The translations under genes were made by a program, and so were the position numbers. 64,000 bases of DNA, taken from positions 741,571 to 805,570 of the forward strand of contig NZ_JAGGPR010000005.1 of the NCBI RefSeq assembly GCF_018613695.1, written 5' to 3'. This document shows, piece by piece, positions 57,082-63,230 of this stretch; the first letter of the stretch is position 1, and each line of letters opens with the position of its first letter. The notes under the pieces are model-generated. The model was given only the letters and a program-made list of their open reading frames with translations. It searched no databases and was not told the DNA's origin. The DNA comes from Arthrobacter sp. ISL-95. Lineage in GTDB: Bacteria; Actinomycetota; Actinomycetes; Actinomycetales; Micrococcaceae.

Positions 57082-58125
57082 CTAAACCTTGACCTTCACA
57101 GTCTCCCACGCCTTCAGAACGGCGTCATGCTCCGCTGAACCCGAACCGAAGAGTTCCTCAGCGGTAGCAACGGTGGTTTTGGCAAACTTTCCAAACGTGC
57201 ACGTTGCGGGGAGGCTTCCGCCGGTCAATGTGTTGTACCAGATCTGCCCCGGCGCTTCCCACGCATTGCCACCAAGTTCTGTTGCCACTATGTAGAAAGC
57301 CTTGTTGGGGATGCCGGAGTTGATGTGCACTCCGCCATTGTCAGCGCTGGTCCGTACGTACGTGTCCATGGAGTCCGGCTGGGGATCCTTGCCCAGGACG
57401 TCGTCGTCGTAGGCGGTGCCCGGTGCTTTCATGGAGCGTAAGGCGACGCCTTGGACCTGGTCCGTGAAGAGGCCCTCACCGATGAGCCAGCTGGCTTGTT
57501 CTGCACACTCCTTCTTCAGGTACTGCTCCACGAGGACACCGAAGACGTCAGACATGGACTCGTTGAGTGCACCGGCCTGGTTCCGGTAGGCCAGGTTGGC
57601 GGTGTATTGGGTAACCCCGTGAGCGAGTTCGTGGCCGATAACGCTAAGGGACTTGGTGAAGCGCTGGAAGATCTCGCCATCGCCATCGCCAAAGACCATT
57701 TGGGAACCATCCCAAAAAGCGTTGTCGTAGAGCTTCCCGTAATGCACGGTTGCGTCCAGTGCGAGGCCGGCATCATCAATGGAGTCCCTGCCGAAAATCT
57801 CGCCATACAGTCGGTGAGTGCTCCCGAGGCCGTCGTACGCCTCATCGGCGGCCACGTCCCCAACAGGTCCCGCACCCTCCTTACGGACCACACGTCCAGG
57901 CAACGCTTCTGAAGACTCAGCATCATAAATGGTCCGCTTCGGCGGGCCGGGCTTGGCTTGGCGGGCACTGGGAGGCGCTGGCGGAATGGGCGCTGTGCGG
58001 ATGGCCTGCAACCCTTTGATATGCAGTAGCGACTCTTTGGCTGCTCTGGCCACAGCACGCAGCCGTGGCTCGTTTTGGGCGGCTAACTTGCGAAGCATGT
58101 ACGGCGGGACGATCGAGCACTTCAC
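57082..58125 (-). CDS. Protealysin-like M4 metallopeptidase
   Basis: The protein is 347 residues. The zinc motif HELAH is at 165-169, the third ligand in NESMSD (Glu189), and the catalytic histidine in GGVHINSG (His267). It has no signal peptide. The short N-terminal propeptide carries PPYM (7-10), the hallmark of protealysin-type precursors in place of the long thermolysin FTP/PepSY propeptide. It would self-process in the cytoplasm or exit by an unknown route. A paired inhibitor gene follows. A cysteine pair (KKECAEQ, ATCTFG) is present. Confidence 0.92.
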   Translation of the reverse strand: MKCSIVPPYMLRKLAAQNEPRLRAVARAAKESLLHIKGLQAIRTAPIPPAPPSARQAKPGPPKRTIYDAESSEALPGRVVRKEGAGPVGDVAADEAYDGLGSTHRLYGEIFGRDSIDDAGLALDATVHYGKLYDNAFWDGSQMVFGDGDGEIFQRFTKSLSVIGHELAHGVTQYTANLAYRNQAGALNESMSDVFGVLVEQYLKKECAEQASWLIGEGLFTDQVQGVALRSMKAPGTAYDDDVLGKDPQPDSMDTYVRTSADNGGVHINSGIPNKAFYIVATELGGNAWEAPGQIWYNTLTGGSLPATCTFGKFAKTTVATAEELFGSGSAEHDAVLKAWETVKVKV

Positions 58126-58243
58126 GGCAAACCCCTTTGGCTATCGGTATGACCAACTGAATTCAGCCTAGGAGGAGGGGCGGACATTTTTGCGGTTCAG
58201 GACCGGCAAGCCCTGAACTGATAGTCAGTATCCGGCACACAAA

Positions 58244-58276
58244 ATACCCCGCCAGCAAAGCTGGCGGGGTATTCGT
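58244..58276 (-). terminator. Terminator of the tRNA-Arg gene
   Basis: ATACCCCGCCAGC pairs with GCTGGCGGGGTAT around a three-base loop and is followed leftward by TTTTG. It begins three bases after the tRNA 3' end. Confidence 0.92.
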
Positions 58277-58278
58277 TG

Positions 58279-58351
58279 TGCCCTCGATAGGATTCGAACC
58301 TACGGCCTTCTGCTCCGGAGGCAGACGCTCTATCCCCTGAGCTACGAGGGC
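58279..58351 (-). tRNA. tRNA-Arg (anticodon CCG)
   Basis: Read leftward, GCCCTCG opens the acceptor stem and CGAGGGC closes it with discriminator A. The D arm is AGCTCAGGGGATAGAGC, the anticodon arm TCTGC-CTCCGGA-GCAGA gives anticodon CCG, and the T arm is GTAGGTTCGAATCCTAT. Length is 73 bases without CCA, which is not encoded. It reads CGG arginine codons, frequent in this GC-rich genome. Confidence 0.97.
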
Positions 58352-58459
58352 ATCCAGGGTTCCCTCCGTTGCCGGTGGGACGTCCTAGAGCTTAGCAGTC
58401 ACTGCGCCGCAAATGAAAACCCGACGCCACCGCGGCGACCCCGGCCGGGGACGTGCCTA

Positions 58460-59962
58460 TCAGTAGCCGGCGAACGAGTCCACATGGACCCGGCGCGCTC
58501 CTGCGCCACGTGATGCAGCGCGCAGGGAATCCACACTCGCCGGGGACCCGGAGACGAACACTTCCCTATCCCCAATGTCCGGAACCAGCTCCTTAAGGCG
58601 CGAAGCATCGATCCTGGAGGCACCGGCGTCGAGCATGAACTCCGGGGGAGCGGACCCGTCCGCGAGCCGGGCTATTACTTTGGCGCCTGAGGCTTGCAGT
58701 TGTTCCACACAAGCCAGCTCATCGCGGCCCTTTGCCAGATACAGCACCACGGTGTCACGTGCAACGTCCTTGGTCGCCAGTTGCGACAGGAAAGGTGCGA
58801 TGCCGATTCCTGCGGCGATGAGCAGAACCGGCTCGCCGGCGTCGTTCGGTAGAACAAAGTCTCCACCCACGGCTGTTGCGGAAACACTGTCCCCGGGACG
58901 AAGCGCAAACAGTGCCTTCTTCGCCGTAGAGAGGGGCTCGGCCGTGCCCACTCCGAACGTGACTTCCTCCGCACCAGGCGGGCTGGTGATGCTGAAGACG
59001 CGACGACGCCCCTTGCCATCCGAACCCGCATGCGGAAGGTTCAGCTCCATGAACTGCCCGGCTGCAAAGCGCACTGGCCTCCGCGGTTCGAACCTGAATT
59101 CAGTAGTGGCAGGAGTGAGGGGGCGCGAGCCCTTGAACGTCAGCTGGACCCCACCGCGCTGTCCCAGGAAGAAAGCAATGAGGTTGCCCAGCAACAGTGC
59201 CAGTTCCGGGGAGTTGGCAACGAAACCCAAGTTATACGGAACCGCGAAGACAACACCCACGACGCCGGCAAGTGCCAGCTGCTGCCAGCGACGGGGAGGC
59301 AGGGTGAGGGGTTCCGAAAGCATGAAGCCCACGAAAAACAGCAACGGCCGTTGCGCCAGGGTCTGCCACAGGGCTTGGCCCAAGGTCATATCGCGGCCGA
59401 GCAGTTCCACCGTAATGATGCTGGTGGCAGCCACCAGGAAAACAGTGGCCATCAGCATTTTCCTGGTGCGGTACAGAACCAGGATCACTCCCGGAACCAG
59501 AAGCCAGAGCATGGCTGGCGTGGCAGCCCACCACGTGGCGATGTTGAGCCCGGTCAGACCCGTGATGAACGCTCCCACCGCGGCTGGGTTGAAGATATGC
59601 CGCCCACGGAAGGCCAATGCATATTTGGAGACGCTGGCCAGCACGCACGCCAACGCAACGCCCGCCATATCCATCACCCCGAAGGCAGGCCAAAACAGGA
59701 AGTACAGCAGCAGCCCGGTGATCAGCGAAGACTCCGTATGCGGTTTCACGCCGAAGAGCAAGGCAAGCAGCCGGCCGGATGCGTAGGTCAAGCCCAGGCA
59801 AAGCACTAAATGGACCAACATCTCAGGCAGGCCAAAGGTCAACCACCCTAAGAGGTTCAGGACCATGCTGTAGGCCGCCAGCACGCCAAGTACCCAGAGA
59901 ATCAAGCGGTACATGGTGAAGCGGCCCAACCAGGTGTCCACTCGGGACTTAGCGGCAATCAT
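58460..59962 (-). CDS. NqrB/RnfD-like membrane domain fused to a ferredoxin-NADP-reductase-like domain
   Basis: The protein is 500 residues. Residues ~15-275 hold about eight to ten membrane helices with KYALAFRGRHIFNPAAVGAFITGL, the RnfD/NqrB motif region. Residues ~280-500 form an FAD/NAD(P) oxidoreductase: RFAAGQFMELNLPH, RRRVFSITSPP and LLIAAGIGIAPFLSQL, ending VDSFAGY. It would pass electrons from cytoplasmic NAD(P)H through the membrane to an outer acceptor. The stop codon of the upstream apbE gene overlaps its start (ATGA-like, 59959-59962), and an FMN-binding lipoprotein completes the operon. Confidence 0.88.
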   Translation of the reverse strand: MIAAKSRVDTWLGRFTMYRLILWVLGVLAAYSMVLNLLGWLTFGLPEMLVHLVLCLGLTYASGRLLALLFGVKPHTESSLITGLLLYFLFWPAFGVMDMAGVALACVLASVSKYALAFRGRHIFNPAAVGAFITGLTGLNIATWWAATPAMLWLLVPGVILVLYRTRKMLMATVFLVAATSIITVELLGRDMTLGQALWQTLAQRPLLFFVGFMLSEPLTLPPRRWQQLALAGVVGVVFAVPYNLGFVANSPELALLLGNLIAFFLGQRGGVQLTFKGSRPLTPATTEFRFEPRRPVRFAAGQFMELNLPHAGSDGKGRRRVFSITSPPGAEEVTFGVGTAEPLSTAKKALFALRPGDSVSATAVGGDFVLPNDAGEPVLLIAAGIGIAPFLSQLATKDVARDTVVLYLAKGRDELACVEQLQASGAKVIARLADGSAPPEFMLDAGASRIDASRLKELVPDIGDREVFVSGSPASVDSLRAASRGAGARRVHVDSFAGY

Positions 59963-60831
59963 GTGAACAGTCTCCCCTCAAAACGGTTCGAAAACGCGGC
60001 AACACCAGTGGAGGAGACCGTAAGCCACGAGAATTCAAATTCCTCCTCCAAGCGAGGCGGTTCAACCATGAACAATGCTGTGGCCAGCGCGTCCGCCACC
60101 AAGGCGCTCGCCGCCATGGTCCATGTAGCCACTGTGGCGTTTATTGGCTTGCCCGTGGTCCCGTCCAGAACATGGTGGAAACCGTCTCCCCACATTCGGC
60201 GGTTCGAAGCCGAGGCGCACAGGGCAGCGTTACTGAGCTCCACCGTGCCTATGGCCTGCCGCGGGTTGTAGGGGTGCTCCAGCGCAACGGCGGCTGGATG
60301 GATGCCGGCGTGCAGCATGTCGCCGCTTCCATCCACCAGGAAATCGGTATGGCCACTCTCTTTCAGGACTTCACCCAGCAGGTCAACGAGTTGCCCCTTG
60401 CCGGCGGCTCCCACGTCCAGGACCACCGGCTCTTGAGCGGCCAGCTCCGTGCCTGACCATTCAAGGACGTCCTCCCACCGTGCCGGGGCCAGGGGACTCC
60501 CGGACGGAGCAAGTGCATAAGTGGAGTCGTAGCCCAGTCGCTCCAGACTGCTGCCGATCAACGGGGTCATGGCGCCATCGCTGAGACGATACAGAGCGGA
60601 ATACACCTCCTGGAGGGCGACGGCATGCTCCGGCAACGTGATTCGGCCCGGGGCGCGGGCCAGCCCCGAGACCAAGGAATCGGGCCTGAACCGAGACCAC
60701 GTTTTGTCATATTCTGCAACGCTCTCCAGCAGCTCGCTGCGGATCGCGGGTACCAGACGTTCCGGCGTCGAAATCTCCCACTGCGTACCGATCCCTTCGA
60801 AGCGGAAAGTGCTCCACCCAGGGTGCGGCAT
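59959..60831 (-). CDS. apbE: FAD:protein FMN transferase (ApbE family)
   Basis: The protein is 290 residues. RFEGIGTQWEI, TWSRFRPDSLVSGL, LDVGAAGKGQLVDLL and a late TWTMAASALVADALATALF fit ApbE, which attaches FMN to a Thr or Ser of partner proteins. It has no lipoprotein signal, whereas many ApbE proteins are exported, so location is unclear. The neighbours (an FMN_bind lipoprotein five bases upstream, an NqrB-like reductase overlapping downstream) are the expected substrate and electron donor. Confidence 0.9.
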   Translation of the reverse strand: MPHPGWSTFRFEGIGTQWEISTPERLVPAIRSELLESVAEYDKTWSRFRPDSLVSGLARAPGRITLPEHAVALQEVYSALYRLSDGAMTPLIGSSLERLGYDSTYALAPSGSPLAPARWEDVLEWSGTELAAQEPVVLDVGAAGKGQLVDLLGEVLKESGHTDFLVDGSGDMLHAGIHPAAVALEHPYNPRQAIGTVELSNAALCASASNRRMWGDGFHHVLDGTTGKPINATVATWTMAASALVADALATALFMVEPPRLEEEFEFSWLTVSSTGVAAFSNRFEGRLFT

Positions 60832-60836
60832 GGCTG

Positions 60837-61331
60837 CTACTTGGCCTGGGACTTGATCTGTTCCACGGCTTCGTTGAAGCCGCCGGACGTCAAGGAAGAG
60901 CCGGCAACCTTGGAGACGTTGAGCTCATCGATGTCCTTACCTACGATCTGCGCGGCGATGCCACCGGCAAACTCACCCTGGAACTTCTTGGTATTGGGGT
61001 TGGAAGGGTGAACCGTGATGTTGACCGCAGAGACCTTATCGGCGGCCAGCGTCAGTTCAACACCCACCGTTTCCTGACCATTGGGCGAGGTGTACGTGCC
61101 GTCGGAACTGTAAGTCCCGTCCTTATAGGTGGACGCGCCGGTGGATGCGACAGCCGCTGATGACGACGTGCCTGCAGATGTTGGGCTGCCGGTTGCGGCT
61201 TGGCCACCATCCTGGCTGGCAGGGGTTTGGGTTGCGGGGGCTTCGGTCGTGGGGGCGCATGCCGCGGCCGTTCCTATGATGGAGAGGCCGGTGAAACCGA
61301 CGTAGAGGCTCTTGCGGAGTGGCGTAGTCAT
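60837..61331 (-). CDS. FMN-binding domain lipoprotein
   Basis: The protein is 164 residues. A lipoprotein-like signal ends GTAAAC (cysteine 25), followed by a Thr/Ser/Ala-rich linker and an FMN_bind domain from ~85 (STYKDGTYSSDGTYTSPNGQETVGVELTLAADKVSAVNITVH). The flavin-acceptor segment reads V-A-G-S-S-L-T-S-G-G-F, where classic proteins have S-G-A-T-x-S/T; a Ser or Thr is available for phosphoester-linked FMN. It would carry electrons on the outer face. ATG 61331 was chosen to place the signal; 61373 is an in-frame alternative. Confidence 0.87.
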   Translation of the reverse strand: MTTPLRKSLYVGFTGLSIIGTAAACAPTTEAPATQTPASQDGGQAATGSPTSAGTSSSAAVASTGASTYKDGTYSSDGTYTSPNGQETVGVELTLAADKVSAVNITVHPSNPNTKKFQGEFAGGIAAQIVGKDIDELNVSKVAGSSLTSGGFNEAVEQIKSQAK

Positions 61332-61565
61332 GGTTCTGCTCGTTTCAACTGGACAAGAATTCGTCAAGGTCATTTTTCGGTCAGGGTCACTGCGTGTATC
61401 GGGATGACCTACGAGGCCACCTCCTACGTGTTCACAACGTCGAATTCAGCGTAATGGTTCAGTCTGTGCCGCCAGGTTGCCGTTCCTGTGAGTGACCTGG
61501 GTCCCGGTATCCACATATGGGACCCTCAATTCCGCGACTTTGCGGGCCCCCGGTAGGCTAGAAGC

Positions 61566-63230
61566 GTGACTCCCGAAGAACTCTCTGCTGCCATATCCGC
61601 CTGCCTTAAGGACGCCGTCTCTACCGGCGAAATCACCTTGACGGAATCTGCTGTGCCCGAATCCGTGCGAGTGGAGCGACCCAAGAACCGGGATCATGGA
61701 GACTGGGCCACCAACATCGCCCTGCAGCTCTCCAAGCAGGCCGGCATGAATCCGCGCGAATTCGCGGGAATCCTCAGCAACCATCTGCAGGGCATTCCCG
61801 GTGTCACCGGCGTGGAAATCGCCGGTCCCGGCTTCCTCAACGTCACCGTGGATGCCGCCACGGCCGGTGCCCTCGCCAAGGCCATTGTTGAGGCCGGAAC
61901 CAGTTACGGCACCAACCAAGCGCTCGCGGGCCGTGTGGTAAATATGGAGTTCGTTTCAGCGAATCCCACCGGCCCGCTCCACATCGGGCACACCCGCTGG
62001 GCGGCCTTGGGCGATGCGATTGCACGGGTTCTGCGCGCGTCCGGTGCAGACGTCACCGCCGAGTACTACATCAACGACGCCGGCTCGCAGATGAACGTCT
62101 TTGCCAATTCCGTCCTCTCCCGGCTTCATGGCCGTGGTGTTCCGGAGGGCGGCTACCCGGGCGAATACATTCGTGAACTCGGCGACGAAGTGCTCAAGGC
62201 GCACCCCGGCATCCGCGAACTGACGGACGAGGCAGCCCTGCCCGTTATCCGTGGCGCAGCCTACGAGGCCCAGATGGCGGACATCAAGACAACCCTGGCC
62301 GGGTTCGGCGTGGAGTTCGATGTCTTCTTCTCCGAGAAGGAACTGCACGACGCCGGTGCTATCGAATCCGCTGTCGCCCGCCTTCGGGAGCAGGGGCACG
62401 TGTTCGACGACGGCGGAGCAGTGTGGTTGCGCACCACGGACTTCGGCGACGACAAAGACCGTGTCATGATCCGCGCCAATGGCGAGCCCACCTATTTTGC
62501 TGCGGACGCCGCGTACTACCTCTCAAAGAAGGACCGCGGCTTTACCGAAAAGATCTATCTGCTCGGTGCGGACCACCACGGTTACATTAATCGCCTGAAG
62601 GCTATTGCGGCCTGTGCGGGCGATGATCCCGAAGTCAACATCGAGGTCCTTATCGGCCAGCTTGTGTCCGTCAACGGTGCCAAGTTGTCCAAGCGTGCCG
62701 GCAACATCATTGAGCTCAAGGACCTTATCTCCTGGCTTGGCAAGGACGCTGTCCGGTACTCGCTGGCCCGTTTCCCGGCCGACTCGCCGCTGACGCTGGA
62801 CCCGGAGCTGTTGAAGAAACACAGCAACGAGAACCCTGTGTTCTACGTGCAGTACGCCCATGCACGGTCTCGCGGCACGGCGCGCAACGCCGCCGAAGCC
62901 GGCGTGGAGCGCCAGGTTGATGGAGTGGATGCCTTCGACGCCTCACTCCTGGACCACGCCACGGAAAACGAGTTGCTTTCCTACCTTGGAAGCTACCCGT
63001 CCATCGTGGCCAAAGCCGCCGAACTGCGAGAGCCGCACCGTGTGGCGCGCCACCTGGAGGTCATTGCCGGGGCCTACCACCGCTGGTACGACGCCTGCCG
63101 CGTGTCGCCGCAGGGTGATGATCCCGTACTGGACGTAAACCGCACCCGTCTGTGGCTCAATGACGCCACCAGCCAAGTGCTGGCCAACGGACTCGAACTG
63201 CTGGGCGTTTCGGCGCCGGAACGGATGTAG
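61566..63230 (+). CDS. argS: Arginyl-tRNA synthetase
   Basis: The protein is 554 residues. The class I signatures are HIGH (GPLHIGHTRWAALGDAIARVLRASG) and the KMSKS-equivalent GAKLSKRAGN; the N-terminal Add-1 domain and C-terminal DALR anticodon domain (VFYVQYAHARSRGTARNA to ANGLELLGVSAPERM) are complete. It charges tRNA-Arg, one of which is encoded 3.2 kb away. The start is GTG at 61566. The lysA gene follows four bases later, an actinobacterial arrangement (argS-lysA-hom-thrB) that in Corynebacterium links arginine and lysine supply. Confidence 0.97.
   Translation: MTPEELSAAISACLKDAVSTGEITLTESAVPESVRVERPKNRDHGDWATNIALQLSKQAGMNPREFAGILSNHLQGIPGVTGVEIAGPGFLNVTVDAATAGALAKAIVEAGTSYGTNQALAGRVVNMEFVSANPTGPLHIGHTRWAALGDAIARVLRASGADVTAEYYINDAGSQMNVFANSVLSRLHGRGVPEGGYPGEYIRELGDEVLKAHPGIRELTDEAALPVIRGAAYEAQMADIKTTLAGFGVEFDVFFSEKELHDAGAIESAVARLREQGHVFDDGGAVWLRTTDFGDDKDRVMIRANGEPTYFAADAAYYLSKKDRGFTEKIYLLGADHHGYINRLKAIAACAGDDPEVNIEVLIGQLVSVNGAKLSKRAGNIIELKDLISWLGKDAVRYSLARFPADSPLTLDPELLKKHSNENPVFYVQYAHARSRGTARNAAEAGVERQVDGVDAFDASLLDHATENELLSYLGSYPSIVAKAAELREPHRVARHLEVIAGAYHRWYDACRVSPQGDDPVLDVNRTRLWLNDATSQVLANGLELLGVSAPERM

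What the first reader, a model, noticed from the sequence alone, without database searches (positions are those of the whole stretch)
58460..61331. Compact flavin electron-export operon: FMN_bind lipoprotein, ApbE and an NqrB-reductase fusion
Three overlapping genes encode a membrane protein that joins an NqrB/RnfD-like channel to its own NAD(P)H-flavin reductase, the enzyme that attaches FMN, and an outer-face FMN carrier with an atypical acceptor segment (GSSLTSGGF). Together they could move reducing power across the membrane in a strict aerobe with no Rnf or Nqr complex in sight. The terminal acceptor is unknown.
Basis: partly seen in the sequence, partly recalled or inferred. Interest (0 to 1): 0.55.

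Follow-up and report, generated by a model that had tools for sequence, protein, structure and literature searches.

The report
Actinobacterial NQR/RNF-like flavin electron-export operon
A three-gene cassette in a soil bacterium (an Arthrobacter relative) that probably carries electrons from NAD(P)H inside the cell to a flavin-bearing protein on its surface; the type is already published, but its flavin-attaching enzyme seems to sit on the wrong side of the membrane, which is an open and testable puzzle.

Summary
The operon is real: FMN carrier lipoprotein (60837-61331), ApbE (59959-60831) and an RnfD/NqrB-like membrane domain fused to an NAD(P)H-flavin reductase (58460-59962), minus strand. 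It is a member of a published kind, the 'NQR/RNF-like system' (Meheust 2021, Huang 2024), proposed to pass electrons one way from NAD(P)H to an extracytosolic FMN carrier. The own genome shows no Rnf/Nqr by PF03116 and PF02508. The fusion occurs in 53 of 61 genus genomes, rarely elsewhere in the phylum, and 41 of 42 fusion loci hold the triad. The 'atypical' acceptor is a fixed trait: GSS in 35 of 43 carriers, GAT in 7, GAS in 1, following the fusion tree. Not discussed in what I read: no cassette ApbE shows an N-terminal hydrophobic signal (0 of 41; 9 have no room for one) against 25 of 30 control ApbEs, while the carriers have one, RR being seen in only 2 of 43; the FAD exporter family PF07456 is absent in 21 of 21 genus genomes. 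This suggests flavinylation in the cytosol before export; unproven. Terminal acceptor unknown.

The parts
60837..61331 (-). FMN_bind lipoprotein (electron carrier), 164 aa, signal MTTPLRKSLYVGFTGLSIIGTAAAC with lipobox cysteine at residue 25, low-complexity linker, C-terminal FMN_bind domain
   Evidence: PF04205 18.1 bits (cut-off 22); profile match to FMN-binding chain 8p2a E 1.1e-14; model matches 8p2b, 3o6u, 8p2a and RnfG 8ahx_G only at E above 0.001; coordinates
60876..60905 (-). acceptor segment AGSSLTSGGF; Ser146 (60894-60896) aligns with the flavinylated Thr of SGAT
   Evidence: alignment; coordinates; covalent FMN not tested
59959..60831 (-). ApbE flavin transferase, 290 aa, no evident N-terminal signal
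   Evidence: PF02424 130.2 bits; residues invariant in an 11-sequence alignment kept (among them D139, K145, G170, D171, S207, R212, H220, D247, T251); N-terminus
58460..59962 (-). fusion protein, 500 aa: RnfD/NqrB-like membrane domain (about 1-267) plus FAD/NAD(P)H reductase domain (about 268-500)
59153..59962 (-). RnfD/NqrB-like membrane half, with invariant H122, F124, N125, P126, A128 and E217, P218, T220, P222
   Evidence: RnfD 8ahx_D E 5.9e-6; Z 22.9, rmsd 3.5, 253 aligned (range of the whole model 10-400); invariants
58460..59152 (-). cytosolic reductase half; RRVFS (FAD) and GIGI.P (NAD(P)H) motifs (motif meanings recalled)
   Evidence: benzoate dioxygenase reductase 1krh_A E 5.3e-18, NqrF 7qu3_A E 2.8e-17; 4eh1_A Z 25.2, rmsd 2.6, 221 aligned; coordinates
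61423..61468 (.). conserved block between the operon and divergent argS, probably promoter region(s)
   Evidence: alignment of 13 loci; function inferred only; no sigma-70-type match

Best explanation
It is an NQR/RNF-like one-way electron exporter. The cytosolic half of the fusion takes electrons from NAD(P)H into FAD; the RnfD/NqrB-like half, probably with a non-covalent flavin, passes them across the membrane; the lipoprotein, carrying FMN on Ser146 put there by ApbE, takes them on the outer face and hands them to an unknown acceptor (ferric iron or another soluble or mineral oxidant most likely). Shown here: gene order, domain homology, conservation of the triad, lack of the membrane flavinylation site, absence of Rnf/Nqr. 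Inferred: every electron-transfer step, the covalent FMN, the acceptor. Because ApbE has no evident export signal, I further infer that flavinylation happens in the cytosol on the still unfolded carrier, before Sec export.
For: RnfD-like half (PF03116 in 6 of 12 alignment members, the window not among them) and reductase half (PF00175 at E up to 1 in 12 of 12 members, the window itself at 12.3 bits under the cut-off); FMN_bind carrier (13 of 13 members at E up to 1); ApbE; all three genes in 41 of 42 fusion loci, among them actinobacteria, Saccharimonadia, a Yanofskybacteria MAG and a Herpetosiphonaceae MAG, and also on a Mesorhizobium plasmid; no [STA]GA[ST] motif in the membrane half in 44 of 45 fusion loci, as published for this group; no Rnf/Nqr in the genome; same model in print. 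A VIT-family gene two genes from the Mesorhizobium carrier and VIT1 in six published clusters hint at iron.
Against: No experiment on any member was found in the papers and passages read. The window proteins alone give no PF03116 match and fall below cut-off for PF00175 and PF04205. No acceptor or iron gene lies beside the window's cassette (flanking genes scanned); neighbours sampled in other lineages differ, and no DtxR-like box was found in the window (recalled consensus). A signal-less ApbE does not fit the usual picture of ApbE working outside the cell: in the review, a cytosolically expressed ApbE did not replace the exported one in a knockout, and the cytosolic ApbE of Klebsiella serves a cytosolic substrate (passages).
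Confidence: 0.75

Rival explanations
1. The carrier is exported unmodified and flavinylated outside by a leaderless or otherwise exported ApbE, so the ApbE is extracytosolic after all.
For: Listeria FmnB flavinylates outside (passages of PMC9973259); in the review, location outside the cytosol was needed for ApbE function in a knockout test (passage).
Against: No hydrophobic N-terminal segment in 32 scored ApbEs and no room for one in 9 more; 0 of 21 genus genomes have the EetB family PF07456 (other FAD exporters not tested); neither ApbE gene of the own genome has an evident signal.
Confidence: 0.15
2. The carrier is folded and flavinylated in the cytosol and exported by Tat.
For: Some cofactor-loaded proteins use Tat (passage of PMC9973259); 2 of 43 carriers have RR in the n-region.
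Against: The window carrier and 25 others read RK or KR, not RR; 10 of 43 carriers have no lipobox and look like plain N-terminal anchors.
Confidence: 0.1
3. The cassette works the other way, taking electrons from an outside donor to NAD(P)+, or acts mainly as a redox sensor feeding a two-component system.
For: Two-component genes lie beside the cassette in L036, L039, L107 (kinase), L108 (kinase) and L148.
Against: No such genes among the scanned genes beside the window operon; the published proposal is outward flow.
Confidence: 0.08
4. The carrier is not covalently flavinylated because GSS is not an ApbE site; it is a remnant or binds flavin loosely.
For: The motif departs from D-x-x-[S/T]-G-A-[S/T]: no D, A to S, T to S; Thr to Ser lowers flavinylation in tested cases.
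Against: GSS is kept in 35 of 43 carriers, and an ApbE of the longer type with the invariant residues lies beside it where scored.
Confidence: 0.12

Closest known systems
NQR/RNF-like flavinylation system (Meheust et al. 2021 eLife, PMC8238504; Huang et al. 2024 mSystems, PMC11334425)
   Same: Two subunits plus ApbE; RnfD/NqrB-like domain fused to NAD-binding domain; extracytosolic FMN_bind partner; no Thr flavinylation site in the membrane subunit; Actinobacteria and candidate phyla.
   Different: The window proteins fall below Pfam's own cut-offs for the families named in the 2021 rule (thresholds used there not read); Ser acceptor GSS; ApbE without evident export signal (not discussed in the sections and passages I read).
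Na+-NQR and RNF complexes
   Same: RnfD/NqrB-like subunit, RnfG/NqrC-like FMN carrier, NqrF-like reductase fold.
   Different: No PF02508 (NqrDE/RnfAE) in the genome, no flavinylated Thr motif in the membrane half, no sign of a [2Fe-2S] domain in the fusion, no return path.
Listeria flavin-based extracellular electron transfer (PplA, FmnB, FmnA, EetB; Ndh2 and quinone recalled)
   Same: Electron export to a surface flavinylated lipoprotein in a Gram-positive.
   Different: Exported FmnB and an ECF FAD exporter with EetB; EetB family PF07456 absent in 21 of 21 genus genomes.
MsrQ-like flavinylation systems (PF01794)
   Same: Common in Actinobacteria; one with FMN_bind and ApbE lies at C7 of the same genome.
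   Different: Ferric-reductase-type membrane domain with predicted haem sites instead of RnfD-like; GGAT acceptor at C7.

Membership tests
[quoted passage not shown]
   One alignment: PF03116 in 6 of 12 members, PF00175 in 12 of 12 at E up to 1; RnfD 8ahx_D E 5.9e-6; fold Z 22.9 (rmsd 3.5, 253 aligned) to RnfD, Z 25.2 (rmsd 2.6, 221 aligned) to a flavohaem-type reductase domain
NQR/RNF-like system, as described in 2021 and 2024 | gene cluster with ApbE and an extracytosolic FMN_bind protein | tested here: met
   signal and lipobox judged by hydropathy and pattern, not SignalP
NQR/RNF-like system, as described in 2021 and 2024 | membrane subunit lacks the NqrB/RnfD flavinylation Thr | tested here: met
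   no [STA]GA[ST] in the membrane half of the window fusion; 1 of 45 fusion loci has one (L032); RnfD residues between the two aligned stretches (143-219) have no counterpart in the alignment
NQR/RNF-like system, operational Pfam rule of the 2021 survey | the single protein scores PF03116 and PF00175 | tested here: not met
   window protein: no PF03116 at E up to 1, PF00175 12.3 bits against Pfam's cut-off 22; the filing rests on homology, not on this rule
Na+-NQR or RNF complex | NqrDE/RnfAE and separate NqrB/RnfD subunits in the genome | tested here: not met
   PF02508 and PF03116: 0 matches in own genome
ApbE-flavinylated FMN_bind proteins | motif D-x-x-[S/T]-G-A-[S/T] | tested here: not met
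   window reads S-K-V-A-G-S-S; GSS in 35 of 43 carriers
ApbE-flavinylated FMN_bind proteins | covalent FMN on Ser or Thr | not testable with these tools
   needs mass spectrometry
Extracytosolic ApbE | signal peptide or lipidation site | tested here: not met
   of 42 cassette ApbEs 41 could be placed: 32 scored, none at 1.6 or more (highest 0.85), 9 with under 15 residues upstream; control 25 of 30; own crude hydropathy measure, no SignalP

The most novel reading that the evidence does not exclude
Pre-export flavinylation: in the NQR/RNF-like family ApbE stays in the cytosol, puts FMN on the unfolded carrier, and the FMN-bearing chain is then threaded through Sec (or inserted), so that the cell needs no FAD exporter. 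This would break the rule that Sec-exported flavoproteins must be loaded outside.
Probability: 0.35. Interest if true: 0.65.

Novelty: new member of a known kind. Interest (0 to 1): 0.38.

Why it matters
The cassette is close to core in Arthrobacter-type soil bacteria yet, as far as I saw, untested, and the window's member is missed by single-sequence Pfam scans for its membrane half, so Pfam-based surveys may undercount it. The mismatch between a signal-less ApbE and an exported carrier makes a concrete question testable: on which side of the membrane is the flavin attached, and can Sec pass a chain that already carries FMN?

Tried and rejected
Rejected: a full Nqr or Rnf complex elsewhere in the genome. 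Rejected: a mis-called ApbE start that hides a signal; the frames upstream hold no strongly hydrophobic stretch. No DtxR/IdeR-like box in the window with up to 3 mismatches (consensus recalled). No sigma-70-type promoter match in 58150-61700. The VIA-align list for the fusion model shows RnfD chains but no NqrB chain among the rows listed; that is no evidence against NqrB kinship. The carrier model is only moderate (mean pLDDT 71.6) and none of its PDB matches has E of 0.001 or less. Literature searches: 0 papers; 1; 7 papers, 6 listed; 23 papers, 15 listed; 2; no title or start of abstract in these lists points to a signal-less ApbE with an exported substrate, but apart from the five papers named next the listed papers were not opened. 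Papers: PMC8238504 (abstract, sections 6, 8, 13 and passages), PMC11334425 (section 9 and passages), PMC12052999, PMC5928378 and PMC9973259 (passages only). Supplements could not be opened, so the gene tables of the 2021 survey were not checked.

Full report
What is there. Three minus-strand genes lie between a tRNA-Arg (58278-58351) and the divergent argS (61566-63230): an FMN_bind lipoprotein, an ApbE and a 500-residue fusion. ApbE and fusion overlap by ATGA; carrier and ApbE are 5 bases apart. The window is position 741571-805570 of contig C22 of a 4.73-Mb genome, 99.93% complete; the nearest named relatives are Arthrobacter and Paenarthrobacter (best segment 95% identity).

Domains. Alone, the fusion gives only weak Pfam matches. 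With 11 relatives in one alignment, the reductase half matches benzoate dioxygenase reductase (E 5.3e-18) and NqrF (E 2.8e-17). Of the 12 members, each scanned on its own, PF00175 is seen in 12 and PF03116 in 6 at E up to 1; the window has PF00175 at 12.3 bits (cut-off 22) and no PF03116. A profile of the membrane half finds RnfD of Azotobacter (8ahx_D, E 5.9e-6). An AlphaFold2 model (mean pLDDT 82.6, pTM 0.64) aligns with RnfD chains (8ahx_D Z 22.9, rmsd 3.5, 253 residues, model range 10-400) and with reductase domains of the flavohaem/FNR type (4eh1_A Z 25.2, rmsd 2.6, 221 residues). The membrane half of the window has no [STA]GA[ST] site, and 44 of 45 fusion loci lack it, the exception being L032. 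The published NQR/RNF-like subunits lack the NqrB/RnfD Thr too.

Carrier. The carrier profile matches the FMN-binding structure 8p2a (E 1.1e-14). The window carrier scores 18.1 bits for FMN_bind (cut-off 22), but 13 orthologues beside the fusion in a sample of 31 genus genomes pass at 22.1-23.9 bits (places compared). Its acceptor segment reads S-K-V-A-G-S-S-L-T-S, where canonical proteins read D-x-x-[S/T]-G-A-[S/T]. GSS occurs in 35 of 43 carriers, GAT in 7, GAS in 1. On a tree of 42 fusions the GAT group is one side of a branch (support 91/92) and the labels need 2 changes, the least possible (the tool warns of long branches, so deep joins are unsure). The six GAT loci in which an ApbE was found have a low-scoring, shorter ApbE (131-214 bits, one of them a partial sequence), the GSS and GAS loci a longer one (297 bits or more) on a profile dominated by the GSS type; so carrier, ApbE and fusion seem to be inherited together. 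FMN on Ser is documented for other ApbE substrates (review passages); A to S at the third place of the motif is not mentioned in the passages I read.

Distribution. In the genus, 53 of 61 sampled genomes match the fusion at E up to 1e-40; G408 has only the reductase half, G424 and G446 are partial or split, and G405, G410 and G451 align short of the C-terminus. In 396 genomes of the phylum 29 match, but only 8 over the full length (the own genome and one congener among them; one, G298, with an internal stop); 21 match the reductase half alone. Named relatives outside actinobacteria are Saccharimonadia and Saccharibacteria, Paceibacterota, Yanofskybacteria and Herpetosiphonaceae MAGs, and a Mesorhizobium plasmid. 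Of 42 loci with a fusion of at least 400 residues, 41 have both partners; in L033 no ApbE was detected, and in L044 the ApbE is partial.

The topology puzzle. In the first set of 34 ApbE frames the highest 17-residue hydropathy in the first 90 residues is 1.32 (for L021 and L024 the frame opens far upstream, so that call does not test them). In the cleaned set of 42, 41 could be placed by motif: 32 were scored over the 45 residues upstream, none reaching 1.6 (highest 0.85), and 9 have fewer than 15 residues before the preceding stop. The control, with one measure for both groups, gives 25 of 30 ApbEs of the phylum at 1.6 or more and 0 of 50 cassette-side rows. That control is not a random sample: it is the 30 loci fetched among the best scorers of a search in which 95 of 198 genomes matched, mostly from deep-branching families; the 50 rows include duplicates and the C7 gene, and some were measured over only 25 residues. 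All 43 carriers have an N-terminal hydrophobic segment (lowest 1.53, 41 of 43 at 1.6 or more). A lipobox pattern is found in 33 of 43 (31 with an added hydropathy condition); the 10 without it are L032-L039, L044 and L045. RR occurs in the n-region of 2 of 43 (L047, L050); 26 read RK or KR; L006, L044 and L046 could not be parsed there. The own genome has two ApbE genes, the second at C7 also without an evident signal. The FAD exporter family PF07456 (EetB) was found in 0 of 21 genus genomes, while the control rang in Thermotoga and Lactococcus; other FAD exporters were not tested. The Listeria paper states that Sec-exported proteins need an extracytosolic cofactor supply, whereas cytosol-loaded ones go through Tat (passage). 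The cassette fits neither. Against the bold reading: the known cytosolic ApbE of Klebsiella serves a cytosolic enzyme, and a cytosolically expressed ApbE did not replace the exported one in a knockout (review passages). For it: ApbE needs only a seven-residue site, which works best at a protein's end (review passages), so modification of an unfolded precursor is plausible. That Sec can pass bulky attached groups is recalled from memory, not looked up.

Mechanism. Best reading: NAD(P)H to FAD (reductase half), to a flavin in the RnfD-like half, to FMN on the lipoprotein, to an outside acceptor. This is the published proposal for the group and nothing here contradicts it; each electron step remains inferred. 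Iron is the best guess for the acceptor (a VIT-family gene two genes from the Mesorhizobium carrier; VIT1 in six published clusters), but nothing in the window supports it directly.

Verdict. The worth lies in the conserved GSS acceptor and in the ApbE placement, which I did not find discussed in the papers and passages I read.

Noticed in passing
own genome C7, L005 1761-2797: The MsrQ-like membrane gene next to a second FMN_bind and ApbE pair seems to have lost about 0.4 kb of its middle, and its frame, compared with relatives among L111-L118; the NQR/RNF-like cassette may be the only intact flavinylation system here.
   Followed up: partly
window 61423-61468: A conserved block of about 45 bases between argS and the operon in an alignment of 13 loci, more conserved than its surroundings; perhaps overlapping divergent promoters.
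   Followed up: no
L036, L039, L107, L108, L148: Two-component kinase and/or regulator genes lie beside the cassette in five distant loci, two of which (L107, L108) come from one genus.
   Followed up: partly
L051-L072: Twenty-one genomes of the phylum sample, most of them in one family (f12), have a reductase of about 230-275 aa close to the C-terminal half of the fusion without the membrane half.
   Followed up: no
L149 (Pseudomonas sp. DR48 plasmid pDR48-1): An unannotated 19-kb record filed as a Pseudomonas plasmid carries an Arthrobacter-like cassette (fusion 68.5% identical to the window's); possibly a contaminant.
   Followed up: partly
L119-L125: A further, longer ApbE type in seven sampled genomes of the genus; its N-terminus and partners were not properly examined.
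   Followed up: no
window 57082-58125: Thermolysin-like M4 peptidase with a weak protealysin-propeptide match, on the far side of the tRNA-Arg from the operon.
   Followed up: no
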